DNA from: Mycolicibacterium litorale
GTDB taxonomy: Bacteria; Actinomycetota; Actinomycetes; Mycobacteriales; Mycobacteriaceae
Length of the DNA stretch: 64,000 bases
Assembly: GCF_014218295.1 (NCBI RefSeq)
Contig: NZ_AP023287.1
Coordinates: 3,472,001-3,536,000, forward strand
Direction of reading: 5' to 3'
Of this stretch, positions 24,037-53,832 are shown in pieces. The position numbers and the translations under genes are program-made. The notes under the pieces are model-generated. The model was not told the origin of the DNA, ran no database searches, and was given only the letters and a program-made list of their open reading frames with translations. The number at the start of each line of letters is the position of its first letter. The first letter of the stretch is position 1.

Positions 24037-24055
24037 ATAGGTACGCCTAACCTAA
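24037..24055. promoter_or_regulatory. IdeR-type iron box upstream of porin copy 1
   Basis: ATAGGTACGCCTAACCTAA matches the mycobacterial IdeR consensus TWAGGTWAGSCTWACCTWA at 17 of 19 positions (mismatches at 1 and 8). It lies 74 bases upstream of the GTG start, close to the same spacing as copy 2. Confidence 0.75.
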
Positions 24056-25846: not shown

Positions 25847-25865
25847 ATAGGTTCACCTAACCTTA
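25847..25865. promoter_or_regulatory. IdeR-type iron box upstream of porin copy 2
   Basis: ATAGGTTCACCTAACCTTA matches the IdeR consensus at 16 of 19 positions. The flank GCTAACTGAGA...GAATCAATAGGT is also shared with copy 1, so the promoter was duplicated with the gene. From 25866 to 26050 no gene or other signal is seen. Confidence 0.7.
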
Positions 25866-34900: not shown

Positions 34901-37159
34901 CTTGTCGGCGACCTCACCGGGCAGCGGTTCGCCGCCGATCGGGACCCGCTGCAGGGTCCGCCACTGGTTGACCCCCGGAAGCGACAGGAACAGACCGAGC
35001 AGCGACGGGACGAAGTGCATCGCCGTGATGCCCTCGTCGCGCAGCAGGTCGGTGAGGTAGCCGATGTCGTTGAGCCCGCCCGGCCGGTGGATGACGATGC
35101 GGGCGCCGCACGCGAGCATGCCGAAGATCTCGGCGATCGACACGTCGAAGCTCGGTGAGGCGACCTGCAGCAGGCGGTCGTTGCCGTCGACCTGGTAGTC
35201 GTTCTTGAACCAGACGAAGTACTCGGCGACCGGGCGGTGCGGAACCGGCACGCCCTTGGGGAGGCCGGTGGTCCCGGAGGTGTAGATCAGGTACGCGGTG
35301 TTCTCCGGGCGCAGCGGCCGCACCCGGTCGGCGTCGGTCGGGTCATCGTCAGGGAGGTCGTCGATTCCGATGACCGGTTCCCGCAGAACGACTTTCGCAT
35401 CGCAGTCGCCGAGGATGAACGTCAGCCGGTCCTCGGGGTAGGTCGGGTCGATCGGCACGTACACCGCCCCGGCCTTGGCCACGCCCAGTGCGGTGACGAC
35501 GAGCTCGGGCGACTTGTCGAGCAGCACCGCGACGCGATCCTCGGCGCCGATGCCCTGGCCGATGAGCCAGTGCGCGACCCGGTTGGCGGCGGCGTTGATC
35601 TCGCGGTACGAGTAGTGCCTGCCCTCGTAGACGACGGCGACCTCGTCCGGCGTCCTGGCCACCTGGGCGGCGATCACGTCGGGCAGCGTGCGGGCCGGGG
35701 TGTCGAAACGCTCGCCGCAGGCGACGTCGTGCAGCCACGCGGCGTCGGCGGCGCTCATCAGCGGCAGGCGCGACAGCGCGGTGCCGGGGTGTTCCAGGGC
35801 GCTGTCGAGCAGCACGACGAAGTGGTCGAGCAGTTGCTGTGCGAGCGCCGGTTCGATGATCTCGACGAGGTGCTCGACCTCGACGAGAACGCCGCCGGTG
35901 CCCGGGTCCGCATCGAATTCGACCATGACGTCGAGCGGGAGCTGAGTGATGTGGCTGCGCAGTTCGGCCCGCTCGCACCGTACGCCGGGCGGGGTGAAAC
36001 CGAAGCGGTCCGGTCCGCGGAAACCAAAGCTCACCCGCGTCATCCGCTCGGTGCCGTGGCGGCGGTCCGGGTTGAGTTCGCGGACCACCAGGTCCACGTT
36101 GACGCCCTGATGGGCGAATGCCTCGAGCGCGGTGTCGCGCGCCTGGGTCAGCATGTCGCGGAACGACATCGACGCCGTCGGCTTCAGCCGCATCGCCACG
36201 GTGTTGCCGTAGTAGCCGATGCGGTTCTCGGTGCCGGCGCCCCGGTTGAGCACCGGGGTGGCGACCAGGAAGTCGTCGGTGTGGGTGTAGCGGTGGATCA
36301 GGGTGCCGAACACCGCCAGCAGCACCGCGTACGGGGTCGATCCGGTCTCCCGCGCGAAGTCGGCGACGCGGCGGGCGGTATCCGCCCCGAGCGCGACGCT
36401 GGTGCGCCCCGAACGCCAACTGGTGGGCACCGCCGAACCGGTCGGCCCCGGAAGTTCGAGTGGCTCCGGCGGATCGGCCATGACCTCACGCCAGTACGCG
36501 AGGTCGGCCTCGGCGTCGCGGGGCGCGGCGGGTATGTGCGGGGTGAGCTCCTCCCCCAGTCCGTCACCGGTGTACGCACGGGTGAGGTCGGCGAAGAAGA
36601 CCTCCCACGAGCCGTCGTCCCACGCGATGTGGTGCGCGACGAGCAGCATGACGTATTCCTGGGGGCCGGTGCGCACCATGGTGATTCGCAGTGGCGCGTC
36701 GGTGGCGAGATCGAACGGTGCAGCGAATTCGCGCTGTGCGAGCACCTCGAGGCGCAACCGCTGCGCGTGGCTCGCCAGGGCGGTCAGGTCGTGCTCGGCC
36801 CAGGCCGGCCGCAGGTCGGGGTGCACGGTCGGACGCGGTTCGCCGGTGTCGTCGACGGTGTAGGTGGTGCGCAGGACGGGGTGGCGGCGGGCGACGGCGT
36901 CGAGCGCCCGGCGCAAGGCGGCGAGGTCGACCTCACCGCGGATGCGGTAGGACAGGCAGATGTTGAGCAGGGCCCCGGACGGGTCGGCGGCCTGGACGAA
37001 CCACATGCGGAGCTGCCCCTCGGACAGCTCTTCGGCCGACGGCACGGGGCCCGTGGCGTTCTGCGACGACAGGCCGCGCTCACTGAGCTTGCGGCGCAAC
37101 AACTCCAGGCGGGCATCGGCGTCCAGGCCGGCCGGCCGTGATTCGGTGGTGTCAGTCAC
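31940..37159 (-). CDS. mbtE: Mycobactin NRPS MbtE
   Basis: 1739 residues from GTG 37159 (V-T-D-T-T-E-S), overlapping mbtD by 8 bases. Order: condensation 1 (H-H-I-A-W-D-D, 176-182), adenylation ([11 protein letters not shown] about 626, N-F-Y-G-P-T-E about 764, Y-R-S-G-D-L about 852), carrier 1 (Ser 1020 in G-G-H-S), condensation 2 (H-H-I-A-A-D-H, 1205-1211), a remnant of an adenylation domain (1532-1606), and carrier 2 (Ser 1659 in G-G-D-S-I). Activates and loads a lysine of the mycobactin backbone. The second carrier with no working adenylation domain is unusual. Confidence 0.95.
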
Positions 37160-40106: not shown

Positions 40107-41434
40107 TTCGCTTCCCGGGGCCGGTCCGGCACCGACACGACGATGTGGGTGTTCGTGCCGCTCATCCCGAATGCCGATACGGCGCCGACACGCTCGCCGT
40201 TGTGGGCCGGCCACGGCGTCAGCTTGTGCGCCACGCGCAGACCCGTGCTGTCCCAGTCGATCTCGCGGCTGGGTTCGTCGGCGTGCAGGGTGGGCGGGAT
40301 GGTGGCGCGCTCGGCGGCGACGAGGACCTTGGCCAGCCCCAGGGCGCCGGCGGCCGCCTGGGTGTGCCCGATGTTGGACTTGACCGACCCGAGCAGCGGT
40401 CCGCGGCCGGGGCGGGCGGCGCCGTAGGTCGCGGCCAGCGCGTGCAGTTCGGTGCGGTCGCCGAGGCGGGTCCCGGTGCCGTGGCCCTCGACCATCCCGA
40501 CGTCCTCGGGCGACACGCCTGCCTGCGCGATGGCGCGGCTGAACAGCCGGATCTGTGCCCGTTCGCTGGGGGCGGTGAGACCGACGGAGCGGCCGTCGGA
40601 GTTGAGGCAGCTCGCTCGGACGTCGGCGAGGATGTCGCGGCCTTCGCGCACCGCGCGAGACCTGCGCTGCAGCACGAAGATCCCGGCCCCCTCGGCCCAG
40701 ACCGTGCCGCTGGCGTGGGCGCTGTAGGGCCGGCAGTGGCCGTCGTCGGAGAGCGCGTGCTGTTTGGAGAACTCGACGAAGTAGCCGGGCGACCCCATCA
40801 CGCAGACACCGCCGGCCAGGGCCAGATCGCAGTCGCCGGAGCGCAGCGCCTGCACCGCGAGGTGCACGGCGGACAGCGCCGATGAGCACGAGGTGTCGAC
40901 GGTGACGGCCGGACCCGCCAGGTCGAGCGTGTACGCGATGCGCCCGGAGATGACACCGAGCGACGTGCCGGTGATGAGATGACCGCTGTGGTGGGAGAAC
41001 TCGGTGAGCGCGGGCCCGTACTCCAGGGCCGACGCCCCCACATAGCAGCCGGCGTCGTGGCCGGCGAGGTCGTCGGGGTTGATGCCGCTGTTCTCCAGCG
41101 CACGCCACGCCAGGCGCAGGGCGACCCGCTGCTGTGGGTCCATCGCGACGGCTTCACGTGGCGAGATGCCGAAGAACTCCGGGTCGAATTCCGCGGCGGC
41201 CGAGAGGAATCCGCCGAGATCGTGGATCTGTTTGAATCCCTCACGCCGCGATCCGGCGAACAGCTCCCGCAGCGACCAGCCGCGGTCGGTCGGGAACGGC
41301 CCCAGTGCTTCGCGCTGCTCGGACAGCAGCGCCCAGTAGTTCTCGGGCGTGTCGATCCCGCCGGGTGCCTCCACCGCCATACCGACGATGACGACGGGGT
41401 CGTCACCGGAGGCGGTCAGGTCCCGTGCGGTCAT
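40103..41434 (-). CDS. mbtC: Mycobactin ketosynthase MbtC
   Basis: 443 residues, a single KS domain. Catalytic Cys in V-D-T-S-C-S-S-A-L, His in E-G-H-G-T-G-T and N-I-G-H-T-Q-A-A. Start ATG 41434 overlaps the mbtT stop (ATGA); longer starts run into mbtT. Works with MbtD, whose AT, KR and ACP are on a separate protein. Confidence 0.95.
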   Translation of the reverse strand: MTARDLTASGDDPVVIVGMAVEAPGGIDTPENYWALLSEQREALGPFPTDRGWSLRELFAGSRREGFKQIHDLGGFLSAAAEFDPEFFGISPREAVAMDPQQRVALRLAWRALENSGINPDDLAGHDAGCYVGASALEYGPALTEFSHHSGHLITGTSLGVISGRIAYTLDLAGPAVTVDTSCSSALSAVHLAVQALRSGDCDLALAGGVCVMGSPGYFVEFSKQHALSDDGHCRPYSAHASGTVWAEGAGIFVLQRRSRAVREGRDILADVRASCLNSDGRSVGLTAPSERAQIRLFSRAIAQAGVSPEDVGMVEGHGTGTRLGDRTELHALAATYGAARPGRGPLLGSVKSNIGHTQAAAGALGLAKVLVAAERATIPPTLHADEPSREIDWDSTGLRVAHKLTPWPAHNGERVGAVSAFGMSGTNTHIVVSVPDRPREAK

Positions 41435-42168
41435 CCGCCGCTCACCAGCGCCGCGACCTCGTCGAGATGATCGTCGAGGTAGAAGTGGCCGCCTTCGAAC
41501 GTCGACAGTGTGAAGCGGCCCGTGGTGTGCGACGCCCAGCGCTGCGACCACTGCGGGCTGATCCGATGGTCGCGGTCACCGCGCAGCGCGTGGATGTCGG
41601 CGTCGATCTGCTCGTCCGATCCGCAGGTGTAGCCGCTCAACGCTCGGTAGTCGGCCCGCACCGCCATGACGAGCAGCTCGACGAAGTCATCGTCCTCGAG
41701 CAGTCGCGGATCGGTGCCGCCGAGGTCGACCATGTCGGCGAGCACGTCGCGGTCGGTGCTGGGCAGGGGTGCCCCCTCGGCGACCGTCGACGGAGCCTGG
41801 CCCGCCGACGCCCACAGCGTGCGCACCGCGACGCCGTGGCGTTCGGCGACCCGCGCGAACTCGAACGCCACCACCGCGCCCATGCAGTGCCCGAACAGGT
41901 CCAGCGGACCGAGGCGGTCCCACGGCCCGGCCTCGAACAGCTGGGTGGCGAGCTCGTCGATGCTCGCGGCCGCCGGATGCCGCAGCCGTTCCGCGCGTTG
42001 CGGGTACTGCACGATATAGGTGTCGATGCCCTTGCCGGAGAACGTCTTCGCCAGCGCGCGGTAGGCCGCGGCGGCGCCACCCGCGTGCGGGAACACCACG
42101 GCCGCAGGACCACCCTCGGCAGGGAAACGTTTGACCCACGGCGCGAACTCGAGCTGCTGCGCCGTCAT
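41431..42168 (-). CDS. mbtT: Type II thioesterase MbtT
   Basis: 245 residues from ATG 42168 (ATGA with the mbtB stop). Alpha/beta hydrolase with nucleophile motif G-H-C-M-G-A (Cys where most type II thioesterases have Ser: F-G-H-C-M-G-A-V), P-H-A-G-G at the N-terminus, Asp in the G-D-R-D region and C-terminal G-G-H-F. Removes mis-loaded groups from carriers in NRPS systems. In M. tuberculosis the thioesterase is the C-terminal domain of MbtB; here it is a separate gene. The G-x-C-x-G elbow would make it a Cys thioesterase. Confidence 0.9.
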   Translation of the reverse strand: MTAQQLEFAPWVKRFPAEGGPAAVVFPHAGGAAAAYRALAKTFSGKGIDTYIVQYPQRAERLRHPAAASIDELATQLFEAGPWDRLGPLDLFGHCMGAVVAFEFARVAERHGVAVRTLWASAGQAPSTVAEGAPLPSTDRDVLADMVDLGGTDPRLLEDDDFVELLVMAVRADYRALSGYTCGSDEQIDADIHALRGDRDHRISPQWSQRWASHTTGRFTLSTFEGGHFYLDDHLDEVAALVSGG

Positions 42169-45100
42169 CGCGCCTGCGCCGACGTCGGATCGAGCGCGGA
42201 CGCCACGTCGGCGGAGTTCATGTCGGCGACTTCGAGGTAGAGCTCGGCGACGGCCTCGAGGCGGTCGCTGCCGGACTCGTGACCGACCAGCCGCTGCGCC
42301 AGGGCGCCGACGTTGCGGGCGGCGAAGATGTCGGTGACCATGACCCCCGGCGAGTCCAGCCATTCGCGGATGCGCGCGACGGTCTGGGTGGCCAGCACGG
42401 AATCGCCCCCGAGTTCGAAGAAGTCGTCGTCGACGCCGACGTTGTCGCGGTCCAGCACGGTGGCGACGATGTCGGCCAGCGCCCGCTCCAGCGCCGTGGC
42501 CGGCGCGCGGTACGTCGGTGCCTGATCCTGGGCGCGTTCGGTCATGCTGCGGGTCAGCGCCGCGGTGACGGCCCTGCGGTCGATCTTGCCGCCCACGGTG
42601 AACGGGATGGTCTCGACGAGAGCGATATGGCTCGGAACCATGTGCGGCGGAACGAGTTCGGCCATCCGGCGGGTCAGCTCCTCGACGGTCAGCCGGGGGT
42701 CCGAGGGATGGACGATCGCGGCGAGCTGTTCGGTGCGCCCGTCCCCGGGAGCGGCCAGAACGGCGGCCACGGCGGCGTCGACTCCGACGATGCGCCGCAG
42801 CGCGGCCTCGACCTCGCCCAGTTCGATGCGGTAGCCGCTGATCTTGACGCGGTGGTCGGCGCGGCCGACGAAGTCGATCTGACCGTCGGGCAGGTAGCGG
42901 ACGAGATCGCCGGTGCGGTACCAGGTCCGGCCGTCGTGGTCGACGAACCGCTCGGCCGTCAGGTCGGGGCGGCCGCGGTAGCCGCGTGCGATTCCGCGCC
43001 CGCCGACCCACAGCTCGCCGGGCACCCAGTCCGGGCAGTCCGCCCCGTCGGCCGCGACGACGCGGCAGGTGTTGTTGGGCAGCGGACGGCCGAACGGTAC
43101 GGCCGACCACCGCTCGGGCAGCTCACCCGGTTCGCAGATGGTGTTGTGGATCGCGGTCTCGGTGGCACCGCCGAGGCCGGCGAAGCGGACATTCGGTGCG
43201 GCGCTGCGCAATTCGCGCACCATCTCGGTACGCACCCAGTCACCGCCGGTGGGCACGACGCGCACCGACGGCAGCGATCCGCCGACCTGGAGCAGCATCT
43301 CCAGCCAGCCGGGCATCCAGTGCAGCACGGTGACGTGATGCTCGTTGATCATGCGTACCCAGCTGTCGGGGTCGCGGCGCTGGGCTTCGTCGACCACGAC
43401 CAGCGAGCCACCCGCGCGCAACATGCCGAACACGTCGAGAACCGACAGATCGCCCTCGAGCGTGGACAGCGCCAGGCAGCGGTCGGCGGGGCCGATCTCG
43501 AAGTGGGCGTTGATGAATTCGAGCGTGTTCATCGCGGCGGCGTGGGTGACCTCGACGCCCTTGGGTGCACCGGTCGAGCCCGAGGTGAACAGCACGTAGG
43601 CGACCTCGTCGGCTCCGATGGCTGCGGGGGTGACGTCCTCGGCGCGGGATCCGACGCGGACCGCTTCGGCGACGGTCAGCGCCGGCAGGGTGGTCGGGGC
43701 GTCGTCGCCGCACGCCAGCGCCATCCGGACGCCGGCGGTCCGCAGGATGGTCTCGGCGCGGTCGGCGGGCTGGTCGGCACCGATCGGCACGTACACCGCG
43801 CCGGCGGCGTGGATCGCCAGCAGCGCCGTCACCTGATCGGCGCACTTGGGGCCCGTCACCGCGACGGTGTCACCGGGTTTGATGCCGGCCACCTGCAGGG
43901 CTCCGGCGACCGCCAGAACCTTCTCGCGGAGGTCGGCGTAGCTCAGCGTGCCCGCCGAGCTGATCACCGCCGTCGCGTCCGGGGTGGCCGCGGCGCTGCG
44001 GAAGAAACCGTCGTGCAGGGCCTCGTCGCTGCGCTCTGCGGTGGTGTCGAGTGCGGTGCGCACCGCCAGCTGTGCCGGCGGCACCGCGGGAGGATCGACG
44101 GCGTCCCACGCGGCGTCGTCGGTGGCGAGCCGCTGCAGTTCGGCGAGCTGGTAGGCGAACATTGCGTCGATGGCCCCGGGGCGGAACGCCTCTTCGCGCA
44201 CGTCCCAGTTGACCAGCAGACCACCGTCGAACGGGGTGACCTGCGAGTCGAGCAGCACCTGTGGACCCTGGGAGATGTGCCAGACCGGGGTGCCGAACTG
44301 GTCGGTGACGTCGCCGGCGAACAGGTCGCCGAGGCCGAGCGCACTGGTGAACACGAACGGCGCCAACGTCGGGGTGCCGTGGTGGCGGCTCAGGTCGCGC
44401 AACACCGACAGACCCGAGTACGTGGAGTGGGCGGCGGAGGTGTGTAGTGCCTCCTGCATCACCCGCGCACGCTGCGCCGGGGTGTGTGCCGCCGTGAAGT
44501 CGACGTCGAGCATCAGAGACGACGAGAAGTCGCCGACCAGTCTGTCGACGTCGGGGTGGAACGGTTCACGACCGAACATCGGCAGGTTGAGCAGGAAGTG
44601 GCGGCTCGTCGACCAGCGGGCCAGCGTCCCGGCGTACGACGCGGCGAACGCCATGGCGGGAGTGATGCCGCGTTTGCGGGCGGCCGCGTAGAGACCGTCG
44701 CGGGTGTGGGCGTCGAGGAACTGCCAACGCCGGGTGCCGCGGCGAGGGTTGCGTTGTTCGGCGCGCGGAACCAGCGGCAGCGCAGGCGGTTCCGGCAGGT
44801 GCGGGATGCGCTCGGCCCACCAGCGGCGGTCCTCGTCCGCGGCCGGGGGCGGTGTCGCGGTGAGGGCGCTGCGGTATTCGCGGTAGGTGTACTGCAGTTC
44901 GGGCAGCTGCACACCGCGGTAGAGCGCGGCGAGGTCGGCCATGAAGTTGCGGTAGCTGACGGCGTCGGCGGCCTGCATGTCGAGGTCGACGTGCAGCCGG
45001 GTCCGCCCGCCGGGCAGCAGGGTCAGCGCCAGCTCGAGCACCTCACCCTCGAGCATCTGATGGGATTTGGTGTCACGGATGACTTCCAACTGCTCCTCGG

Positions 45101-45650
45101 CGGCGGCGATGTCCAGATCGCGGAGGTCGGTGAGCTTGACCGGCAGGGTGCGGTCGCTGATCCGCTGCATACCGTCGCCGAGGATCTCGACGCGCAGCAT
45201 GGGGTGGCGCGCGGCGAGGGCGGCGGCCGCGGCGCGCAGCCGTTCGGGGTCGACGCCGGCGCCGTCGAATTCGACGTAGAGGTGTGCGGCCACCCCGCCG
45301 AGTTCGGTGAGTTCGTTGCGTCCGACCCACAGTGCGTGCTGGATCGGCGCGAGCGGGAACGGCGCGTCCGGATCCCGCGCGCCGGTGTCGGCCGCTGCCA
45401 CGGGTTCCTCGGCCGTGGTGTGCTCACCGACGAGCTGTGCCCACGCCGCCACGGTCGGGTTCGCCGCCATCGCCGCGAAACGCACGTCGATGCCCTGCTT
45501 CCGCCAGCGGCCGGACAGTGACATCATGCGAATCGAGTCGAGGCCGGAGGCGATGAGGTCGGCATTCGGATCGAGCTCGGATTCGTCGATACCGAGAAGT
45601 TCTGCAACCTCGGCGCGCACGGACTGTGAACTCGTCACAACGGCCTCCAC
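42165..45650 (-). CDS. mbtB: Mycobactin NRPS MbtB (aryl carrier, cyclisation, adenylation)
   Basis: 1161 residues from GTG 45650 (GGAGG 7 bases upstream; a second GTG at 45638 also has an RBS). Domains: aryl carrier (Ser 39 in S-G-L-D-S-I-R-M-M), cyclisation domain with D-M-Q-A-A-D-A-V-S fitting D-x4-D-x2-S, adenylation (F-T-S-G-S-T-G-A-P-K-G, Y-R-T-G-D-L), and carrier (E-L-G-G-D-S-V-L-A). Accepts the aryl acid from MbtA, adds Ser or Thr and cyclises it to the oxazoline ring that binds iron. Lacks the fused C-terminal thioesterase of the M. tuberculosis protein. First gene of the eight-gene operon. Confidence 0.96.
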   Translation of the reverse strand: MEAVVTSSQSVRAEVAELLGIDESELDPNADLIASGLDSIRMMSLSGRWRKQGIDVRFAAMAANPTVAAWAQLVGEHTTAEEPVAAADTGARDPDAPFPLAPIQHALWVGRNELTELGGVAAHLYVEFDGAGVDPERLRAAAAALAARHPMLRVEILGDGMQRISDRTLPVKLTDLRDLDIAAAEEQLEVIRDTKSHQMLEGEVLELALTLLPGGRTRLHVDLDMQAADAVSYRNFMADLAALYRGVQLPELQYTYREYRSALTATPPPAADEDRRWWAERIPHLPEPPALPLVPRAEQRNPRRGTRRWQFLDAHTRDGLYAAARKRGITPAMAFAASYAGTLARWSTSRHFLLNLPMFGREPFHPDVDRLVGDFSSSLMLDVDFTAAHTPAQRARVMQEALHTSAAHSTYSGLSVLRDLSRHHGTPTLAPFVFTSALGLGDLFAGDVTDQFGTPVWHISQGPQVLLDSQVTPFDGGLLVNWDVREEAFRPGAIDAMFAYQLAELQRLATDDAAWDAVDPPAVPPAQLAVRTALDTTAERSDEALHDGFFRSAAATPDATAVISSAGTLSYADLREKVLAVAGALQVAGIKPGDTVAVTGPKCADQVTALLAIHAAGAVYVPIGADQPADRAETILRTAGVRMALACGDDAPTTLPALTVAEAVRVGSRAEDVTPAAIGADEVAYVLFTSGSTGAPKGVEVTHAAAMNTLEFINAHFEIGPADRCLALSTLEGDLSVLDVFGMLRAGGSLVVVDEAQRRDPDSWVRMINEHHVTVLHWMPGWLEMLLQVGGSLPSVRVVPTGGDWVRTEMVRELRSAAPNVRFAGLGGATETAIHNTICEPGELPERWSAVPFGRPLPNNTCRVVAADGADCPDWVPGELWVGGRGIARGYRGRPDLTAERFVDHDGRTWYRTGDLVRYLPDGQIDFVGRADHRVKISGYRIELGEVEAALRRIVGVDAAVAAVLAAPGDGRTEQLAAIVHPSDPRLTVEELTRRMAELVPPHMVPSHIALVETIPFTVGGKIDRRAVTAALTRSMTERAQDQAPTYRAPATALERALADIVATVLDRDNVGVDDDFFELGGDSVLATQTVARIREWLDSPGVMVTDIFAARNVGALAQRLVGHESGSDRLEAVAELYLEVADMNSADVASALDPTSAQAR

Positions 45651-45749: not shown

Positions 45750-47399
45750 ATGAGCACCGGATTCCAGAACCTGCAGAGCGACCTCGCCGACGGTTTCGTA
45801 CCCTTCCCCGACGACCGCGCCGAGGAGTACCGGCGGGCGGGCTACTGGGCCGGGCGTCCGCTGGAGTCGCTCCTGCTCGACGCGGCGCAGCAGCGGCCCG
45901 ACCACCCCGCGGTCGTCGACGTCGACGAATCCCTCAGCTACGCCGAGTTGGTGCGCCGCGCCGACGCCGCCGCGGCCGCCATCGCCGGACTCGGCATCCG
46001 GCCCGGGGACCGCGTGCTGTTGCAGTTGCCCAATTCCGTGCGGTTCGCCGTCGCGTTCTTCGGGCTGCTCAGGGCGGGCGCGGTTCCGGTGATGTGCCTG
46101 CCGGGGCACCGCACCGCAGAGCTCGGGCACTTCGCCGACGTCAGTGGCGCGGTGGCCATGGTGATCCCCGACGAGGTCGGCGGTTTCGACTACCGCGAGA
46201 TGGCGGCCCAGCTGACCGCGGACCGGCCCGGCCTTCGGCACGTCATCGTCGACGGCGACGCGGGCCCGTACACGTCGTGGACGGCGCTGGTCGACGGTGG
46301 CGGCGCACCACCGGAGCGCGCACCGGTCGACACGTCCCTGCCCGCGCTGCTGCTGGTGTCCGGTGGGACCACCGGGCTGCCCAAGCTGATCCCCCGCACC
46401 CACGACGACTACGTCTACACCGCGGTGTCGAGTGCGCAGGCCTGCCACGTCAGCGCCGACGACGTCTATCTGGTGGCGCTGCCGGCCGGCCACAACTTCC
46501 CGCTCGCATGCCCCGGGATGCTGGGCGCGATGACCGTCGGGGCGACGACGGTGTTCACCGCCGATCCCAGCCCGGAGGCAGCGTTCGCGCTCATCGACAA
46601 GCACAAGGTGACCGTCACCGGGCTGGTCAACGCGCTCGGCAAGCTGTGGGCGCAGGCCTGCGAGTGGGAACCGGTGCTGCCGACGTCGCTGCGGCTGGTG
46701 CAGGTGGGTGGCTCGCGGATGAGCCCGGAGGAGGCGCGGTTCATCCTCGACCGGCTGACCCCCGGACTCTCGCAGATCTTCGGGATGGCCGAGGGCATGC
46801 TGAACTTCACCCGGCCGGGCGATCCGGTCGACGTCGTGGTGCACACCCAGGGCCGGCCGGTGTCACCGCACGACGAGATGCGGGTGGTCGACGAGAACGG
46901 TGACGAGGTCGCGCCCGGCGACGAGGGTGAACTGCTGGTGCGCGGGCCCTACACGCTCAACGGGTACTACCGGGCCGACGAGGCGAACGCCCGCTCGTTC
47001 AGCCCCGACGGTTTCTACCGCACCGGGGACCGGGTCCGGATCTTCGCCGACGGCCCGTTGGCGGGCAACGTCGAGGTCACCGGTCGCATCAAGGACGTCA
47101 TCCACCGCGGCGGCGAGACCGTCTCGGCGACCGATCTCGAAGACCACCTGCTCACCCACCCCGGGATCTACTCCGCGGCGGCGGTCGCGTTGCCCGACGA
47201 CTATCTCGGCGAGAAGATCTGTGCCGCTGTGGTTTTCCGCGGCAAGCCGCTCACGCTCGCCGAGCTCAACGCGTTCCTCGACGAGCGCGGGGCATCCACG
47301 CACGCCCGGCCCGACGTGCTGGTGCCGATGCCGTCGCTGCCGTTGACCGCGGTCGGCAAGGTCGACAAGAAGAAGATCATGGCCCAGCTGACGGCCTGA
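45750..47399 (+). CDS. mbtA: Aryl acid AMP ligase MbtA
   Basis: 549-residue stand-alone adenylation enzyme that activates an aryl acid to its adenylate and loads MbtB. ATP motif [20 protein letters not shown], catalytic Lys near the C-terminus (G-K-V-D-K-K). Aryl pocket residues Asn 249, Phe 250 and Cys 254 (G-H-N-F-P-L-A-C) are those of salicylate-specific MbtA, but residue 291 is Gly (V-T-V-T-G-L-V) where M. tuberculosis MbtA and B. subtilis DhbE have Ala (core position 278). That would make room for a substituent such as a ring methyl. Divergent from mbtB under shared iron boxes. Confidence 0.95.
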   Translation: MSTGFQNLQSDLADGFVPFPDDRAEEYRRAGYWAGRPLESLLLDAAQQRPDHPAVVDVDESLSYAELVRRADAAAAAIAGLGIRPGDRVLLQLPNSVRFAVAFFGLLRAGAVPVMCLPGHRTAELGHFADVSGAVAMVIPDEVGGFDYREMAAQLTADRPGLRHVIVDGDAGPYTSWTALVDGGGAPPERAPVDTSLPALLLVSGGTTGLPKLIPRTHDDYVYTAVSSAQACHVSADDVYLVALPAGHNFPLACPGMLGAMTVGATTVFTADPSPEAAFALIDKHKVTVTGLVNALGKLWAQACEWEPVLPTSLRLVQVGGSRMSPEEARFILDRLTPGLSQIFGMAEGMLNFTRPGDPVDVVVHTQGRPVSPHDEMRVVDENGDEVAPGDEGELLVRGPYTLNGYYRADEANARSFSPDGFYRTGDRVRIFADGPLAGNVEVTGRIKDVIHRGGETVSATDLEDHLLTHPGIYSAAAVALPDDYLGEKICAAVVFRGKPLTLAELNAFLDERGASTHARPDVLVPMPSLPLTAVGKVDKKKIMAQLTA

Positions 47400-47477: not shown

Positions 47478-50400
47478 TCAGGCGGCCGAATCGTCCTGGG
47501 CTGCCAGCAGTTCGGCGATCCGCTCACTCACCGCCGCGGCCGTGGGGTACTCCCACAGCAGCGTCGGCGGCAGGGCGAGCCCGGTCTGCTTCTCCAGCTG
47601 ACGCCGCAGCGACACGGTCATGATCGAGTCGACGCCGATCTCCACCAGCGGCAGCCGGACGTCGACATCGTCGGGGGCGCAACCGAGTTCCGAGGCCACC
47701 GCGGTGAGCACCTGTCGCGCCGCCCATTGCGCGACGTCCAGGTCGCCGCGGTCCTCGATCGCGGCGGCGGCGCTCGCATCGGCAGTCTCGGCGGGCGCGA
47801 CGTCGGCCAGGATCGGCACCGCCGCCGCGGCGGGCAGTACGGGCAGCACGACCACGTTCGCGTCGTCGTCGCGCAGCGCCGAGTCGAGCGCCCGCATGGC
47901 GTCGTCGAGGCCGACGGTGCCCATCCCGAGCGCGTCGAGTTGGGCGGCGACGAAGCCGGATGCCGACCCCATGCCCAACCCCCGCCACGCCGTCCACGCC
48001 ACGCTGGTGGTCCGGTCGCCGAGGCGGCGCCGGTGGCGGGCGAACGCGTCGAGGTAGGCGTTACCGCACGCGTACGCGCCCTGTCCGGGGAAGCCCGCGA
48101 GATAGCCGCACGACGAGAACAGCACCATCCAGTCGAGCTCACCCGGCGGGAACAGCTCATGCAGCGCGTTGAGACCGTCGACCTTCGGCCGCATCGCCGC
48201 CTGCAGGTCCTCCGGGGTCGTATTCGACAGCAGCGCACCGGCTTCCACCCCGGCGGCGTGGATGACGCCCCGCACCGGCGGCAGGTCCTCGAGTGCCGAC
48301 CGTAACGCCGCGGCGGCGCCGGGCGCTCCGACGTCGACGGCCGCCACCCGCACCGACACCCCGCGCTGCTCGAGCGCGGACACCACGGCGACGGCCTCCG
48401 AGCCGGGGTGGGCGGGCCACGCCGCGCGCGCCGGCATCCCCGACCGGGACGCCAGCACAAGCCGTCGCGCACCCAGGTCGGCCAGCCGCTGCGCCAATCG
48501 CAGACCCAGCACGCCGGTGCCGCCGGTGATCAGATAGGTGCCGGCGGGCGAACACTGCAGCGGCGCCGCGTCACCGGCGCCGGCGTGGGTCAGTCGGGCG
48601 GCGTACGCGACACCGTCGCGGACCACCACCACACCGTGACCGGCGAGCGCGTTCAGCGCCCGCACGGGGAGCCGCTCACCGGTGACGTCGAGGACCCCGC
48701 CCCACAGCTGCGGGTGTTCGGCGGCGGCGACCCGGGCCATCCCCCACAGCGGGGCGTGCGCAGGGTTGAGGCCTTCGTGGACGTCGGCGGTGAGGACCCA
48801 CAGACGGGCCTGGCTTCCGGACGCGTCCAGGTGTTGCAGGGTGCGCAGCACGAGTTCGGCCGACGCCTGCGGGCTGTCGTCGGCGCGCGGCAGGACCAGC
48901 ACCACCGCACCTGGCGTGAGTGCGCCGAATTCCGTTGACTCGCCGACCGTCCGGTGTGGGACGCCGGCTTCGCCGAGGTCGCGGGCGACGAAGTCGACCG
49001 TCGCCTCGTCGCCGCCGACGACGGCCACCTCGGTGGGCGGCGCGGTGTCGGGCCAGTCGACCGGATGCCACGCCACGTGGTGCAGCAGGCGCACGGTGTC
49101 GCGGCCGCTGGGATTCTCGAGCTCCTCGAACGCCATACCGGTCAACGACACCGACACCGTCCCGGACTCCTCGGCCAGCACCACGTCGGTGACGGTCCCC
49201 GCGTCGCGGCGGCGCACATGCAGCAGGGCGACGGCGGGCGGCTTGTCGTGGACGTGCACCCGTTCGATACGGGCGGGCATCCGTAGCCGCGGCGGGCCGT
49301 CGAAGATCGTGGACGCCGCCGACGTCGCCGCGTCGAGGAGTCCCGCCCACGTCGCCGGTGTGGAACCGTCGGCGTCGGCCGCCACCCGCGCGAACAGTTC
49401 ACCGTCGCCGCGGTGCAGTTCGAGCACCTGCCAGCCGAAGCCCATCGCCGCCACCCCGAGTGTCGCGAGCGTGTCGACCACGTGCGTCGACGGCAGCGAC
49501 TCGGTGCAGCGTGAGCGGATCTCGTCCTCGTCGAGGACGGTCAACGCCGCCTCACCGCCGGGCGCGGCCAGCGCCGTGCAGTGGGTCAGCCAGCCGCCTT
49601 CGGCCTCGTCGTCGACCAGCCGGGACGCCAGCGCCAGTGAGCGGTCCTGTGACACCACCTGGATGTCGCGCGCCCGGCCGGGCGGCACAGGGGTCCGCAG
49701 CCGCACGTCGGCCAGATCGGTGCCCGCGGCGGTGAGGAAGGTGTTGAGCAGCACCGCCGCCGGCACGATCTCCGTGCCCTGCACCGGATGGTCACCGGGA
49801 TAGGGACGCGTCGAGGAGTCCAGGCGCGTCTGCCACACCCGGGCCGGAACGGCGCCGGTCACCTCCATCAGGCCGCCGAGCAGCGTATGCGATTCCGGTT
49901 CGTGCACGCCACGGCCGCCGGGCGGCGCGGTGGGGGTGCGCCAGTGCGTACGGTGCACCCACTGCGTACCCGGAAGATCTGTCGCCCACGGAGTTTCGGT
50001 TCTCACACCGGGATCGACGGGTGCGCCGTGGCAGTACAGGGCGGCGACGGCGACGGCGAGTGCGGGGCGCTCGGGTTGCTCGCGGCGCAGCACGGGCACC
50101 ACCGCGTGGTCGCCGATTCCCAGGTGGCTCAGCGTCTCGGCGATGGAGTGGGCCACGACCGGGTGGGCGGACACCTCGAGGAAGAGCCGGTGACCGTCCT
50201 CGGCCGCGGCGCTGACGGCTTCGGCGAAGCGCACCCGGCCGCGCAGGTTGGCCACCCAGTAGTCCGGGTCCCGCGGCGCGTCCGAGCGCGGATCGGCCAG
50301 TGCGGTGGTGTAGAGCGGCACGGCCGGCGGTGTCGACGGCCCGAGTCCTGCGGTGAGAGCGGCCAACTCGGCGGTGAGGGCGTCCATCGCCGGGCTGTGG

Positions 50401-52595
50401 AACGCCACGTCGGTGTTCACCCGGCGCACCATCAGACCCTCGTCGGCCCACCGTGCGGACACCTCCTCGACCGCCGCGACGGTGCCGGAGATGACCGTCG
50501 ACTCAGGTGACGCACTGATGGCGGCCACCACGTCGGTGCGGTCACCCAGCCGCATCTCGGCCTCGGTGAACGCCAGCCGCACCAGCGCCATCGCCCCTTC
50601 ACCGGCGACGGCGCGGAAACCCCGTGCCCGGTAGCAGGCCACCCTGGCGCCGTGGGCGAGGTCGAACACACCGGCCACCACGTTGGCCGCGACCTCACCG
50701 ACGGAATGACCGATCACCGCGGCGGGGCGCACCCCCCGTTCCCGCAGCACCGCGGCCAGCCCGACCTGCATGGCGAACGTCAACGCCTGCACGTGGTCGG
50801 TGCCGCCGAGGTCGCCGGTGCGAAGCGCCTCACGCGGGGAGAAGCCGAGTTCGGCGGCGAACACCGGTTCCACCGTGTCGATGACCGCCGCGAACGCCGG
50901 TTCGTGGTTCAGCAGTTCGCGTCCCATGCCGGGCCAGTGCGACCCGTGTCCGGAGAACACCCAGACCGCGCCGTCGGCCGCGCCGGCGAGGACGCTGCCG
51001 GTAACCACCGAGGGGGTGCGCCGGTCGCCGGCGAGCGCGTCCAGTCCGGCGACGAGTTCGTCGGTGTCATGCGCGACCACGGCGGCGCGGACCGGCTCGT
51101 GGGACCGCCGTGACCACAGCGTCGCGGCTACCTCACCCACCGGATGCGGTTGGCGCCGAACATGATTCGCGAGGGCGGTGGCCTGGCGGGCCAGCCGCGC
51201 CGAGGACCGCGCGGACAGCGGAAGCACCGACGGCGCGGCGGGGGCCGCCGTCCCGGCACCGGCGCGGGGCGGCGCCTCTTCGAGCAGGACATGGGCGATG
51301 GTGCCGCCGTATCCGTAGCTGCAGACCGCGGCCCGTCGGGGTGTGCCCTCGCGATGCGGCCACGGCTCGACCTGTGTCGGCACCCGCAGCCCGCTGGTCG
51401 ACCAGTCCACGGCCGGGGTGAGCGCGCGGATGCCGGCCGTCGGCGGGATGGTCTCGTACTGCAACGCCATCGCGGCCTTGATCAGCCCGACCACCCCGGC
51501 CCCGCCCTCCAGGTGGCCGGTGTTGGGTTTGACCGATCCGACGCGGCACGGCTGTCCGTCGGCACGCTCGGCGCCGTAGACCGCGGCGAGCGCGTTGAGC
51601 TCAACCGGGTCGCCGGTCGGCGTGCCGGTTCCGTGGGCTTCGACGAATTCGACTGTGCCGGGCGCAATCCCGGAGATCGCACAGGTGTGCCGGAACAGGT
51701 CCTCCTGGGCGGCGCCGTTGGGCGACATGATGCCGACGGTGCGCCCGTCCTGGGCCACCGCCCCGCCGCGCACGACGGCGATCACCCGGTCCTCGTCGCG
51801 CAGTGCGTCGGCCAGGCGCTTGAGCACCACCACCGCCGCGCCCTCGCCGCGCCCGTATCCGTCGGCCGCCGCGTCGAAGCTCTTGCACCGCCCGTCGGGT
51901 GCGGTGGCGCCGGCCTGGTCGAGCACCCGGGTGAGCCCGGGGCCGATCAGCGCGCTCACTCCGCCGGCCAGCGCCAGTGAGGTCTCCCCCGCCCGCAGCA
52001 ACTGGCACGCCTGGTGGACCGCCACCAGAGAGGCGGCGCACGCCGCGTCGAGGGCGACGCTGGGGCCGCGCAGGTCGAGCAGGTGCGAGACGCGGTTGGC
52101 GATACCGCACAGCGACGTGCCGATTCCGGTCCACGCCTCGATCCCCGGGAGATCCTCCATGATGAGCTTGCCATAGTCGTCGGAGTTGACGCCCATCAGC
52201 ACGGCGGTGTCGCTGCCGGCGAGTGAGCGCGGTGGCACACCGGCGTGTTCCAGTGCCTCCCATGAGACTTCGAGGGCGAGGCGCTGCTGCGGATCCATCA
52301 GCTCCGCTTCGCGGGGTGAGACGCCGAAGAACTCGGCGTCGAATCCGGCGAGGTCGTCGAGGAAGGTGCCCCACGGCGTCGTCTCCCGCAGCACTGCGGC
52401 ATTGCGCGGATCGCGCCGCAGATAGGGCTCCCAGCGCTCGGCGGGCACCTCGCGTACGTGGCTGCCGCCGTCGAGCAGGAACTCCCAGAAGTCCGCCGGG
52501 GTGGTGATGTCGCCGGCCAGACGGCAGCCGATACCGATGATGGCGACCGGCTCGGGGGCGGCGGTCTGGTTAGCCTTGCCTAACTCCGTCGACAT
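47478..52595 (-). CDS. 6-Methylsalicylate synthase-type iterative polyketide synthase
   Basis: 1705 residues from ATG 52595. One module: KS (Cys 186 in D-A-A-C-A-A-S, His 321, His 361), AT (Ser 631 in G-H-S-V-G-E; V-A-F-H at 730-733 points to malonyl-CoA), dehydratase/thioester-hydrolase (H-P-V-Q-G-T-E-I-V-P, 936-945, a pattern of the MSAS family), KR (T-G-G-T-G-V-L-G 1357-1364; Tyr 1508, Asn 1512) and ACP (Ser 1657 in G-V-D-S-I-M-T-V). C-S-Y-G-Y-G-G-T-I-A-H-V and L-P-P-T-L-L-W-E are also family marks. Four malonyl/acetyl units with one keto reduction give 6-methylsalicylate; the intact KR argues against orsellinate. It occupies the place of mbtI beside mbtA. Confidence 0.82.
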   Translation of the reverse strand: MSTELGKANQTAAPEPVAIIGIGCRLAGDITTPADFWEFLLDGGSHVREVPAERWEPYLRRDPRNAAVLRETTPWGTFLDDLAGFDAEFFGVSPREAELMDPQQRLALEVSWEALEHAGVPPRSLAGSDTAVLMGVNSDDYGKLIMEDLPGIEAWTGIGTSLCGIANRVSHLLDLRGPSVALDAACAASLVAVHQACQLLRAGETSLALAGGVSALIGPGLTRVLDQAGATAPDGRCKSFDAAADGYGRGEGAAVVVLKRLADALRDEDRVIAVVRGGAVAQDGRTVGIMSPNGAAQEDLFRHTCAISGIAPGTVEFVEAHGTGTPTGDPVELNALAAVYGAERADGQPCRVGSVKPNTGHLEGGAGVVGLIKAAMALQYETIPPTAGIRALTPAVDWSTSGLRVPTQVEPWPHREGTPRRAAVCSYGYGGTIAHVLLEEAPPRAGAGTAAPAAPSVLPLSARSSARLARQATALANHVRRQPHPVGEVAATLWSRRSHEPVRAAVVAHDTDELVAGLDALAGDRRTPSVVTGSVLAGAADGAVWVFSGHGSHWPGMGRELLNHEPAFAAVIDTVEPVFAAELGFSPREALRTGDLGGTDHVQALTFAMQVGLAAVLRERGVRPAAVIGHSVGEVAANVVAGVFDLAHGARVACYRARGFRAVAGEGAMALVRLAFTEAEMRLGDRTDVVAAISASPESTVISGTVAAVEEVSARWADEGLMVRRVNTDVAFHSPAMDALTAELAALTAGLGPSTPPAVPLYTTALADPRSDAPRDPDYWVANLRGRVRFAEAVSAAAEDGHRLFLEVSAHPVVAHSIAETLSHLGIGDHAVVPVLRREQPERPALAVAVAALYCHGAPVDPGVRTETPWATDLPGTQWVHRTHWRTPTAPPGGRGVHEPESHTLLGGLMEVTGAVPARVWQTRLDSSTRPYPGDHPVQGTEIVPAAVLLNTFLTAAGTDLADVRLRTPVPPGRARDIQVVSQDRSLALASRLVDDEAEGGWLTHCTALAAPGGEAALTVLDEDEIRSRCTESLPSTHVVDTLATLGVAAMGFGWQVLELHRGDGELFARVAADADGSTPATWAGLLDAATSAASTIFDGPPRLRMPARIERVHVHDKPPAVALLHVRRRDAGTVTDVVLAEESGTVSVSLTGMAFEELENPSGRDTVRLLHHVAWHPVDWPDTAPPTEVAVVGGDEATVDFVARDLGEAGVPHRTVGESTEFGALTPGAVVLVLPRADDSPQASAELVLRTLQHLDASGSQARLWVLTADVHEGLNPAHAPLWGMARVAAAEHPQLWGGVLDVTGERLPVRALNALAGHGVVVVRDGVAYAARLTHAGAGDAAPLQCSPAGTYLITGGTGVLGLRLAQRLADLGARRLVLASRSGMPARAAWPAHPGSEAVAVVSALEQRGVSVRVAAVDVGAPGAAAALRSALEDLPPVRGVIHAAGVEAGALLSNTTPEDLQAAMRPKVDGLNALHELFPPGELDWMVLFSSCGYLAGFPGQGAYACGNAYLDAFARHRRRLGDRTTSVAWTAWRGLGMGSASGFVAAQLDALGMGTVGLDDAMRALDSALRDDDANVVVLPVLPAAAAVPILADVAPAETADASAAAAIEDRGDLDVAQWAARQVLTAVASELGCAPDDVDVRLPLVEIGVDSIMTVSLRRQLEKQTGLALPPTLLWEYPTAAAVSERIAELLAAQDDSAA
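52565..52583 (-). promoter_or_regulatory. IdeR-type iron box inside the first codons of the PKS
   Basis: Read on the minus strand, TTAGGCAAGGCTAACCAGA fits the IdeR consensus at 16 of 19 positions. It spans codons 5-11 of the PKS. The rare Leu codon TTA in a GC-rich gene falls exactly in the box. A TATTGT -10-like hexamer just upstream of the ATG would place the transcript start near the start codon, with the box just inside the transcript. Confidence 0.7.
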
Positions 52596-52644: not shown

Positions 52645-53832
52645 CTAATCGGCGAGCAGCGTGCGCACCACTCCGTCGGCCAGCAACCGTCCCCGGTCGG
52701 TGAGGATCAGCCGGGTGCCGTCGACCTCCGCCAGACCGTCGGCGACCACGCCGCCGACGCGACCCCGCTCCTGCACGGTGAGCGACTCCAGCGGCAGCCC
52801 GCTGCGCAGCCGCAACCGCAGCATCACGTCCTCGGTGTGCCGCGCGTCCGGGTCGAGGATCTCGAAATCAGCGACGGGCAGCGAACTCTCGGCGAGTACC
52901 GCCGCATACGCGTTGGGATGTTTGACGTTCCACCATCGCGTGTCACCGAGGTAGCCGTGCGCACCCGGTCCGGCGCCCCACCACTCCCCGCCGGCCCAGT
53001 AGCCGAGGTTGTGGCGGCACTCGCCGCCGGGTCTGGCCCAGTTGGAGACCTCGTACCAGCCGAAGCCGGCCTCACCCAGTCGTGCGTCGAGCAGTTCGTA
53101 CCGCGCCGCCAGTACGTCGTCGTCGGGGGCGGCCACCTCGCCGCGCCGCACGCGCCGCGCCAGCGCCGTCCCGTCCTCGACCACCAGCGCGTAGGCCGAG
53201 ACGTGATCGACCCCGGCCGCCACCGCGGCGTCGACGGAACGGCGCAGATCGTCGTCGGTCTCCCCCGGTGTGCCGTAGATGAGGTCGAGGTTGACGTGGC
53301 CGAAACCGGCTGCGCGCGCCTCGCCCGCCGCGGCCAGCGCACGCCCCGGCGAGTGCAACCGGTCCAGCACCGTCAGGACGTGGCGGGCGATCGACTGCAT
53401 GCCCAGCGACACCCGCGTGTAGCCGGCGGCCAGCAGCGCGTCGAACAGTTCAGGTCCCGACGACTCGGGGTTGGCCTCGGTGGTGATCTCCGCGCCGGGC
53501 GCCAGGTCGAAGTGGTCGCGCACGGCGTCCAGCACCGCGCGCAGGCCGGCGCCGCCCAGCAGCGACGGTGTGCCACCCCCGACGAAGACCGTCTGCACCG
53601 GCGGGGGCGACCCCAGCGTGCGGGCGGCCAGGGCCAACTCCTGGCGCATCGCGGTCAACCAGCCGTCGGGGTTCGCACCCCCGGCCTCGGCCGGGGTGTA
53701 GGTGTTGAAGTCGCAGTACCCGCAGCGCGTCGCGCAGAACGGCACGTGGATGTAGACGCCGAACGGCCGGCCCGGCGTCGCGGCCAGCGCCGGCACGCGG
53801 ACGGGTGCGGATCGAACGGTCACTTCACCCAT
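52645..53832 (-). CDS. hemW: Radical SAM heme chaperone HemW
   Basis: 395 residues. Radical SAM cluster C-A-T-R-C-G-Y-C (C-x3-C-x2-C), G-G-G-T-P SAM site, then E-A-N-P-E-S and the HemN-like C-terminal domain. HemW-type proteins lack the extra Cys of HemN and act as heme chaperones, not coproporphyrinogen dehydrogenases; long annotated as HemN in mycobacteria (Rv2388c). On the same strand as the PKS, 49 bases upstream of it, so read-through into the PKS is possible. Confidence 0.9.
   Translation of the reverse strand: MGEVTVRSAPVRVPALAATPGRPFGVYIHVPFCATRCGYCDFNTYTPAEAGGANPDGWLTAMRQELALAARTLGSPPPVQTVFVGGGTPSLLGGAGLRAVLDAVRDHFDLAPGAEITTEANPESSGPELFDALLAAGYTRVSLGMQSIARHVLTVLDRLHSPGRALAAAGEARAAGFGHVNLDLIYGTPGETDDDLRRSVDAAVAAGVDHVSAYALVVEDGTALARRVRRGEVAAPDDDVLAARYELLDARLGEAGFGWYEVSNWARPGGECRHNLGYWAGGEWWGAGPGAHGYLGDTRWWNVKHPNAYAAVLAESSLPVADFEILDPDARHTEDVMLRLRLRSGLPLESLTVQERGRVGGVVADGLAEVDGTRLILTDRGRLLADGVVRTLLAD

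What the first reader, a model, noticed from the sequence alone, without database searches (positions are those of the whole stretch)
47478..52595. A 6-methylsalicylate synthase-type PKS sits where mbtI is expected
Seen: a complete single-module PKS with KS-AT-DH-KR-ACP and MSAS-family motifs (H-P-V-Q-G-T-E-I-V-P; G-G-T-I-A-H-V; L-P-P-T-L-L-W-E), convergent with mbtA. No salicylate synthase is visible in this region, though in M. tuberculosis MbtI is encoded near mbtA. Known: some classical mycobactins (for example mycobactin P of M. phlei) carry 6-methylsalicylate. Inference: this gene supplies the aryl cap here, giving a genetic route to those mycobactins.
Basis: partly seen in the sequence, partly recalled or inferred. 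Interest (0 to 1): 0.88.

Follow-up and report, generated by a model that had tools for sequence, protein, structure and literature searches.

The report
Polyketide cap replaces salicylate in mycobactin
Many mycobacteria appear to start their iron-scavenging molecule mycobactin with 6-methylsalicylate built by a polyketide enzyme, instead of salicylate made by MbtI, which would give a genetic basis to a chemical difference known for decades and would make drugs aimed at MbtI useless against those species.

Summary
Window 47478-52595 (minus strand) encodes a complete KS-AT-TH-KR-ACP protein. Its KS groups with other actinobacterial MSAS-type PKSs (100/99); its middle domain best matches the AviM product-template domain. 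The single-contig genome has no MbtI or PchB over cut-off.

In 118 genomes of the genus, 104 have MbtA and each has an aryl source: MSAS only 38, MbtI only 61, both 5, neither 0. The 14 genomes without MbtA lack both. MSAS lies 1.1-5.5 kb from hemW in 38 of 40 genomes with both on one contig and between hemW and mbtA in 52 of 52 named loci holding both, which is also where mbtI usually lies. MbtA beside MSAS is a separate clade with changes in the pocket region not seen in 61 MbtI-only genomes. On an rpoB tree of 60 genomes the trait changes at least 8 times, together with MbtA type. MSAS has an iron-box-like site in 55 of 55 scored loci where it does not follow mbtA.

No paper found in the held library links MSAS to mycobactin. 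The chemistry is not shown here.

The parts
47478..52595 (-). 6-methylsalicylate synthase-type iterative PKS (MSAS), 1705 aa
51429..52553 (-). KS domain (Cys186, His321, His361 of P0001)
   Evidence: PF00109 and PF02801; residues; KS tree
50070..50966 (-). AT domain, GHSVGE and VAFHS (malonyl-type motif, recalled)
   Evidence: PF00698; Ser631, Ala731, Phe732, His733 in 111 of 111 genus rows and 11 of 11 outside
49107..49889 (-). thioester-hydrolase / product-template domain (His936, Asp1088), called DH by Pfam
47982..48542 (-). KR domain with NADPH motif and Ser-Tyr-Asn residues
   Evidence: PF08659 192 bits
47517..47714 (-). ACP domain (Ser1657)
   Evidence: PF00550
52565..52583 (-). iron-box-like site (IdeR/DtxR type) at the MSAS 5' end, overlapping codons 5 to 11 of the ORF
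   Evidence: 4 mismatches to the recalled 19-bp consensus, 0 of 200 randomised stretches as good; same place in 55 of 55 scored related loci
45750..47399 (+). mbtA, aryl-AMP ligase of the MSAS-linked type
   Evidence: best NCBIfam match TIGR02275, 552 bits, below its equivalog cut-off of 723.55; 5kei 822 bits
45666..45684 (.). weak iron-box-like site between mbtA and mbtB (6 mismatches)
   Evidence: 4 of 200 randomised stretches as good
42165..45650 (-). mbtB-like NRPS: carrier, condensation (taken to be cyclisation), A, carrier
   Evidence: name by domain order and place
41431..42099 (-). thioesterase domain in its own frame after mbtB
   Evidence: PF00975 in ORF 41431-43110
40103..41551 (-). 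mbtC-like KS
   Evidence: name by domain and place
37152..41108 (-). mbtD-like AT-KR-ACP (ORF; the true start lies inside)
   Evidence: name by domain and place
31940..37876 (-). mbtE-like NRPS
   Evidence: name by domain and place
27567..31970 (-). mbtF-like NRPS
   Evidence: name by domain and place
52645..53832 (-). hemW, conserved neighbour that marks the mbtI/MSAS slot (not part of the pathway)
   Evidence: TIGR00539 255 bits, cut-off 205.4

Best explanation
The gene is an iterative type I PKS that makes 6-methylsalicylic acid from one acetyl and three malonyl units, with one ketoreduction, and frees it through its TH/product-template domain (inferred from architecture and family). The free acid is activated by the neighbouring, specialised MbtA and loaded on the aryl carrier of MbtB, where salicylate goes in other species, so that the mycobactin carries 6-methylsalicylate (+14 Da) at its aryl cap. 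Shown here: the gene, its family, no mbtI or PchB over cut-off, the slot near hemW and mbtA, complementary distribution with mbtI, co-switching with MbtA type, iron-box-like site. Inferred: the product, its release as the free acid, and its use by MbtA.
For: No MbtI or PchB over cut-off in the genome; the three chorismate enzymes are TrpE, PabB and an isochorismate synthase. Of 118 genus genomes, 104 with MbtA: 38 MSAS only, 61 MbtI only, 5 both, 0 neither; 14 without MbtA have neither. MSAS 1.0-5.3 kb from mbtA (from the TH region) in 39 of the 40 genomes with both on one contig; 3 have them on different contigs. MSAS 1.1-5.5 kb from hemW in 38 of 40 on one contig; between hemW and mbtA in 52 of 52 named loci holding both. 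mbtI within 10 kb of hemW in 50 of 54 MbtI-only genomes with both on one contig. MbtA identity to the window's: 71-100% with MSAS, 62-69% with MbtI only; DhbE position 280 Asn in 42 of 42 against Pro in 61 of 61, 329 Ile in 41 of 42 against Val in 61 of 61, 277 Gly in 27 of 42 against Ala in 61 of 61. MSAS-linked MbtA is one clade while rpoB needs at least 8 changes. KS clade 100/99 with 11 actinobacterial MSAS-type rows; TH best match AviM PT domain 7vwk; catalytic residues kept. Iron-box-like site at MSAS in 55 of 55 scored non-tandem loci, 0 of 10 tandem, 0 of 11 outside the genus. Precedent: cahuitamycin C (PMC4757757, abstract and passages).
Against: No metabolite seen. PKSs of this layout can also make methyl-naphthoates (recalled; one M. 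vanbaalenii relative is named 5-methyl-1-naphthoate synthase by its source). CahJ, which PMC4757757 proposes to take 6-methylsalicylate, has Ala277, Pro280 and Val329, so the MbtA changes are not required for that substrate; ligases beside MSAS outside the genus also keep Pro280 (11 of 11) and Val329 (10 of 11). MSAS-linked MbtA arose once, so its fixed changes are one event. Five genomes carry both genes; in G027 and G100 the MSAS-mbtA pair is about 3 Mb from hemW, and M. triplex, M. ahvazicum and M. genavense loci hold no hemW. Mycolicibacter species (M. algericus, senuensis, longobardus) have MSAS, whereas mycobactin R of M. terrae is recalled as a salicylate type; M. terrae itself was not examined.
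Confidence: 0.88

Rival explanations
1. The PKS makes a larger aryl acid (for example a methyl-naphthoate) or orsellinate, which then caps the mycobactin.
For: Same KS-AT-DH-KR-ACP layout as known naphthoate synthases (recalled); one relative carries that name.
Against: KR Tyr and Asn are intact in 110 of 111 genus rows (the last has a gap) and 11 of 11 outside, against orsellinate; several classical mycobactins are recalled to carry 6-MSA and none a naphthoate; one protein named M. phlei is in the family.
Confidence: 0.07
2. The PKS serves another metabolite and sits beside mbtA by chance; salicylate comes from an unrecognised source.
For: Five genomes have both MSAS and MbtI.
Against: 0 of 104 MbtA genomes lack both sources and 0 of 14 MbtA-less genomes have either; linkage, co-switching and iron-box-like site; no MbtI or PchB over cut-off.
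Confidence: 0.03
3. Both caps are made wherever salicylate is available; MSAS adds a second cap rather than replacing the first, and MbtA is merely relaxed.
For: 9 of 69 named loci hold mbtI and MSAS side by side, six of them from species named M. peregrinum, septicum, porcinum or senegalense; orphan mbtI with a good iron-box-like site persists in G027 and G100.
Against: 38 of 43 MSAS genomes have no MbtI over cut-off, so there it is a replacement.
Confidence: 0.1

Closest known systems
Mycobactin biosynthesis with MbtI (M. tuberculosis, M. smegmatis type)
   Same: mbtA-mbtB and downstream genes, hemW neighbour, iron-box-like sites
   Different: mbtI replaced by a PKS; MbtA of a separate clade with pocket-region changes
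Cahuitamycin C pathway of Streptomyces gandocaensis (PMC4757757, abstract and passages)
   Same: 6-MSAS product proposed to be adenylated by a free-standing aryl-AMP ligase and loaded on an NRPS line
   Different: there the 6-MSAS gene is unlinked and the salicylate synthase CahI coexists; here it is linked, has an iron-box-like site and is usually the only source
AviM / ChlB1 / PokM1-type bacterial MSAS and OSAS
   Same: KS clade with actinobacterial MSAS-type PKSs, among them one of Streptomyces sp. Tue6028 (recalled as the polyketomycin strain); TH domain like AviM PT
   Different: those feed antibiotics (recalled), some through KSIII-like acyltransferases (ChlB3, PMC9573744, start of abstract seen in the listing); here a siderophore
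Transfer of MSAS/OSAS sub-clusters between gene clusters (PMC4256081, passages)
   Same: that paper infers from a tree that MSAS/OSAS sub-clusters moved between clusters of different types
   Different: the passages seen do not mention mycobactin; the tree figure itself was not held
Fungal 6-MSAS
   Same: domain order and TH domain (recalled)
   Different: no fungal row could be put in the tree

Membership tests
6-methylsalicylate synthase (MSAS) family PKS | single-module KS-AT-TH(DH)-KR-ACP protein of about 1700 aa | tested here: met
6-methylsalicylate synthase (MSAS) family PKS | TH/product-template type middle domain, not an ordinary DH | tested here: met
   best sequence and fold match 7vwk, AviM PT domain, 36% identity, Foldseek E 5e-22; the DH-fold rows at ranks 3-50 have 13-22% identity
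6-methylsalicylate synthase (MSAS) family PKS | KS groups with MSAS rather than with the genome's other PKSs | tested here: met
   53 genus and 11 other MSAS-type rows on one side of a branch, 100/99; 20 other PKS rows outside; no ChlB1, AviM or fungal row
6-methylsalicylate synthase (MSAS) family PKS | intact KR (one reduction; separates it from orsellinate synthases) | tested here: met
6-methylsalicylate synthase (MSAS) family PKS | makes 6-methylsalicylic acid | not testable with these tools
   needs purified enzyme or metabolite analysis
Mycobactin pathway, 6-MSA chemotype | mbtA-F-like cluster with an aryl source beside it | tested here: met
Mycobactin pathway, 6-MSA chemotype | no salicylate synthase in the genome | tested here: met
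Mycobactin pathway, 6-MSA chemotype | MbtA prefers 6-MSA | tested here: inconclusive
   pocket-region changes tied to MSAS, but CahJ lacks them
Mycobactin pathway, 6-MSA chemotype | 6-MSA in the siderophore | not testable with these tools
   mass spectrometry needed

The most novel reading that the evidence does not exclude
The aryl end of mycobactin is an exchangeable genetic module. A slot between hemW and mbtA holds mbtI, MSAS or both, each with its own iron-box-like control; the MSAS module with its specialised MbtA has spread or been swapped at least 8 times across the genus, species of the M. fortuitum group make two caps at once, and the MSAS chemotype makes up about two fifths of the MbtA-bearing species sampled.
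Probability: 0.68. Interest if true: 0.85.

Novelty: new variant of a known kind. Interest (0 to 1): 0.77.

Why it matters
Since the classical structural work (recalled) it has been known that some mycobactins carry 6-methylsalicylate; I found no gene named for it in the held papers. Here is a candidate gene, a rule for predicting the cap from a genome, and a natural series of switches. MbtI is pursued as a drug target (recalled); 38 of 104 MbtA-bearing genomes sampled have MSAS and no MbtI over cut-off, so MbtI inhibitors should fail against them. It also offers a paired natural set (MbtA of two types) to learn how aryl-AMP ligases choose substrates.

Tried and rejected
TH-region hits at 31-37% identity (the only kind in 19 of the 62 genomes with a hit) were considered as a second MSAS family and dropped from the counts; KSs at five such loci fall outside the MSAS clade. 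A first rpoB tree had rows on the wrong strand and was discarded; one search replaces it. I first took P0062 as proof that M. phlei has the gene; it is one protein on one contig, so it is a lead only. I considered that the MbtA changes alone prove 6-MSA use; CahJ speaks against that. The slot claim first rested on three MbtI loci picked for a short mbtI-mbtA distance; searches then tested it over the sample. mbtI lies within 1.7 kb of mbtA in only 18 of 51 MbtI-only genomes with both on one contig; the largest distance is 142 kb. Paper searches for a printed link between MSAS and mycobactin found none beyond PMC4757757; (MSAS structure, CahJ, polyketomycin) added none. I did not repeat the presence/absence survey on a second sample.

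The iron-box consensus, the DhbE pocket and specificity-code numbering, the classical mycobactin structures, the M. fortuitum grouping, the polyketomycin identity of Tue6028 and the malonyl-type AT motif are recalled and come from no call. Random stretches were drawn from first-order base frequencies of the same stretch, not exact dinucleotide shuffles. The 60 genomes of the rpoB tree were chosen by hand for spread out of 103, labels set beforehand; it is a single-gene tree. The 15 named loci in the KS tree were picked by hand from 69.

Full report
What is there. On the minus strand, 52595 down to 47478, lies one open frame of 1705 aa with KS, AT, DH-fold, KR and ACP domains and the quoted motifs. 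It ends 78 bases from the end of mbtA (45750-47399, plus strand), so the two are convergent; mbtB-like to mbtF-like genes follow on the minus strand, and hemW lies 49 bases upstream. The window is bases 3472001-3536000 of a single-contig genome of 5,634,149 bases. The closest relatives of the PKS are in M. litorale: 88-90% identical over the TH region, 91% over the full protein for P0002.

What kind of PKS. A tree of 84 KS domains puts 53 genus rows and 11 rows from Actinophytocola, Streptomyces, Actinomadura and Rhizohabitans on one side of a branch (100/99). The 20 other PKS rows lie outside: they come from this genome, five other genomes of the genus and four named loci. The 11 outside rows are MSAS-type by homology, not by assay. 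The middle domain, modelled at mean pLDDT 81, matches the product-template domain of AviM best (7vwk, 36% identity, E 5e-22); the DH-fold rows ranked 3 to 50 have 13-22% identity. By sequence 7vwk is also first. KS, AT, TH, KR and ACP catalytic residues are kept in 108 to 111 of 111 genus rows, some genomes being in twice; the exceptions are gaps and one KS Ser. They are kept in 11 of 11 outside rows.

No other source of the cap. The salicylate synthase model finds nothing over its cut-off in the genome (best 180 against 325 bits). The three chorismate-binding enzymes are TrpE, PabB and an isochorismate synthase. No isochorismate pyruvate lyase reaches its cut-off (best 29 against 73 bits).

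The natural experiment. In 118 genomes of the genus (95% complete or more, drawn evenly by the tool), 62 have a TH-region hit at E 1e-30 or better. In 43 of them it is 54% identical or more, and I count these as MSAS; the other 19 have only hits at 31-37%. 66 have MbtI over the cut-off and 104 have MbtA. Crossed: MSAS only 38, MbtI only 61, both 5, neither 14; and the 14 are exactly those without MbtA. Of the five with both, G018 and G115 have them side by side and G027 and G100 about 3 Mb apart. M. genavense requires added mycobactin J for optimal growth (PMC11980387, passages), which fits. A family-wide search found MSAS in 3 of 151 genomes, all in this genus, 1 of 30 genera.

The slot. hemW was found in 116 of the 118 genomes. 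MSAS lies 1.1-5.5 kb from it (from the TH region) in 38 of 40 genomes with both on one contig; the exceptions are G027 and G100, where mbtI still stands 2.4 kb from hemW. In MbtI-only genomes mbtI is within 5 kb of hemW in 45 and within 10 kb in 50 of 54 with both on one contig; in four it is 440 kb or more away. One search gave 69 named loci of the genus: 61 hold mbtA, and all 52 that hold both hemW and mbtA have MSAS between them. Nine of 69 also hold mbtI; in these the order is hemW, mbtI, MSAS, mbtA, among them M. peregrinum, M. septicum, M. porcinum and M. senegalense. In 50 of 61 mbtA is on the opposite strand to MSAS, in 11 on the same strand with mbtA upstream. One relative, G036, branches with the window's genome, G086 and G024 on rpoB (98/89). 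Its hemW is 85% identical to the window's, but it has mbtI in the slot and an MbtA only 69% identical.

MbtA follows. MbtA identity to the window's does not overlap between groups: 71-100% with MSAS, 62-69% with MbtI only. In 42 MSAS-linked against 61 MbtI-only sequences (G068 left out), position 280 (DhbE numbering) is Asn 42/42 against Pro 61/61; 329 Ile 41/42 against Val 61/61; 336 Met 41/42 against Leu 61/61; 277 Gly 27/42 against Ala 61/61. 277 and 329 are specificity-code positions by recall. In 11 ligases next to MSAS outside the genus, 277 is Ser in 10 and Ala in 1, while 280 is Pro in 11 and 329 Val in 10; CahJ has Ala, Pro, Val. So 277 differs from Ala in both settings (27 of 42 and 10 of 11), and the rest is special to mycobacteria. 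MSAS-linked MbtA is one clade (SH-aLRT 100, quick tree). On an rpoB tree of 60 of the 103 genomes the MSAS label needs 11 changes, at least 8 by well-supported branches, and one clade is rejected (AU p 2.7e-27). The module and its ligase therefore move or are lost together. Because the MbtA type arose once, its fixed changes count as one event, not 42.

Iron control. A 19-bp iron-box consensus (recalled) was scanned from 250 bases upstream to 30 downstream of the KS start motif in the 80 loci; 4 had no anchor (L153, L162, L171, L191). In 55 loci where mbtA is convergent (47) or not held (8), the best site has 4 (10 loci), 5 (37) or 6 (8) mismatches, and at most 1 of 200 randomised stretches did as well. 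In 10 tandem loci the best has 8-10, in 11 loci outside the genus 8-11. Of 14 tandem entries (M. genavense twice) 11 have a 5-mismatch site within 250 bases upstream of the mbtA match; two of the others, L168 and L191, have one further upstream. mbtI has a site of 6 mismatches or fewer in 14 of 17 entries, some loci twice; at 6 mismatches 0-3 of 200 randomised stretches did as well. In the window the MSAS site is 52565-52583, 4 mismatches, inside the first codons, so the true start or promoter needs checking.

Literature. The nearest printed case is cahuitamycin C, where an unlinked 6-MSAS is proposed to feed the ligase CahJ (PMC4757757, abstract and passages). PMC4256081 infers transfer of MSAS/OSAS sub-clusters between gene clusters (passages). 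Searches for MSAS or 6-methylsalicylate with mycobactin or mbtI returned no paper on mycobacterial 6-MSA. One search (mycobactin P with M. phlei) returned two mycobacterial papers, PMC4810606 and PMC9514802, whose passages do not bear on it. Of the six papers, passages of PMC2661021 and PMC4256081 were seen, the other four in the listing only. Most subscription journals are not held, so this is no proof of novelty.

Judgement. The gene family and its place in mycobactin supply are well supported; the exact product rests on family and on recalled mycobactin chemistry. I count it as a new variant of a known pathway, common in the genus.

Noticed in passing
L191 (M. genavense), L120, L121: MSAS, mbtA and mbtI are all broken in M. 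genavense, which fits its reported need for mycobactin J for optimal growth (PMC11980387 passages).
   Followed up: partly
L115 7873-9126; L116 8709-9965: Orphan mbtI beside hemW, with a good iron-box-like site (3 mismatches), in two genomes (G027, G100) whose only MbtA match is the MSAS-linked type about 3 Mb away; its present use is unclear.
   Followed up: partly
L156, L165, L167, L168, L172-L174, L178, L180, L183, L191: MSAS in the other orientation, in tandem behind mbtA; in the 10 of these 11 that were scored it has no iron-box-like site of its own, suggesting an inversion or a second insertion.
   Followed up: partly
window 24037-24055 and 25847-25865: Two further iron-box-like sites (3 and 4 mismatches) about 2-4 kb beyond the mbtF-like end; the genes they would control were not identified.
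   Followed up: no
window 41431-42165: The thioesterase domain after mbtB sits in a different reading frame from mbtB, as a separate short gene.
   Followed up: no
L193-L200, L202-L204: Outside the genus each of 11 MSAS-type loci has an aryl-AMP ligase (42-45% to MbtA) directly after MSAS on the same strand; 10 of 11 ligases have Ser at the 277 position.
   Followed up: partly
L117 (G011:C9:201000-220900): About 14 kb separate MSAS and mbtA in this genome, against at most 5.3 kb in the other 39 on one contig.
   Followed up: no
G044, G083, G080, G003: MbtI-only genomes in which mbtI stands 440 kb or more from hemW, so the slot is not universal for mbtI.
   Followed up: no
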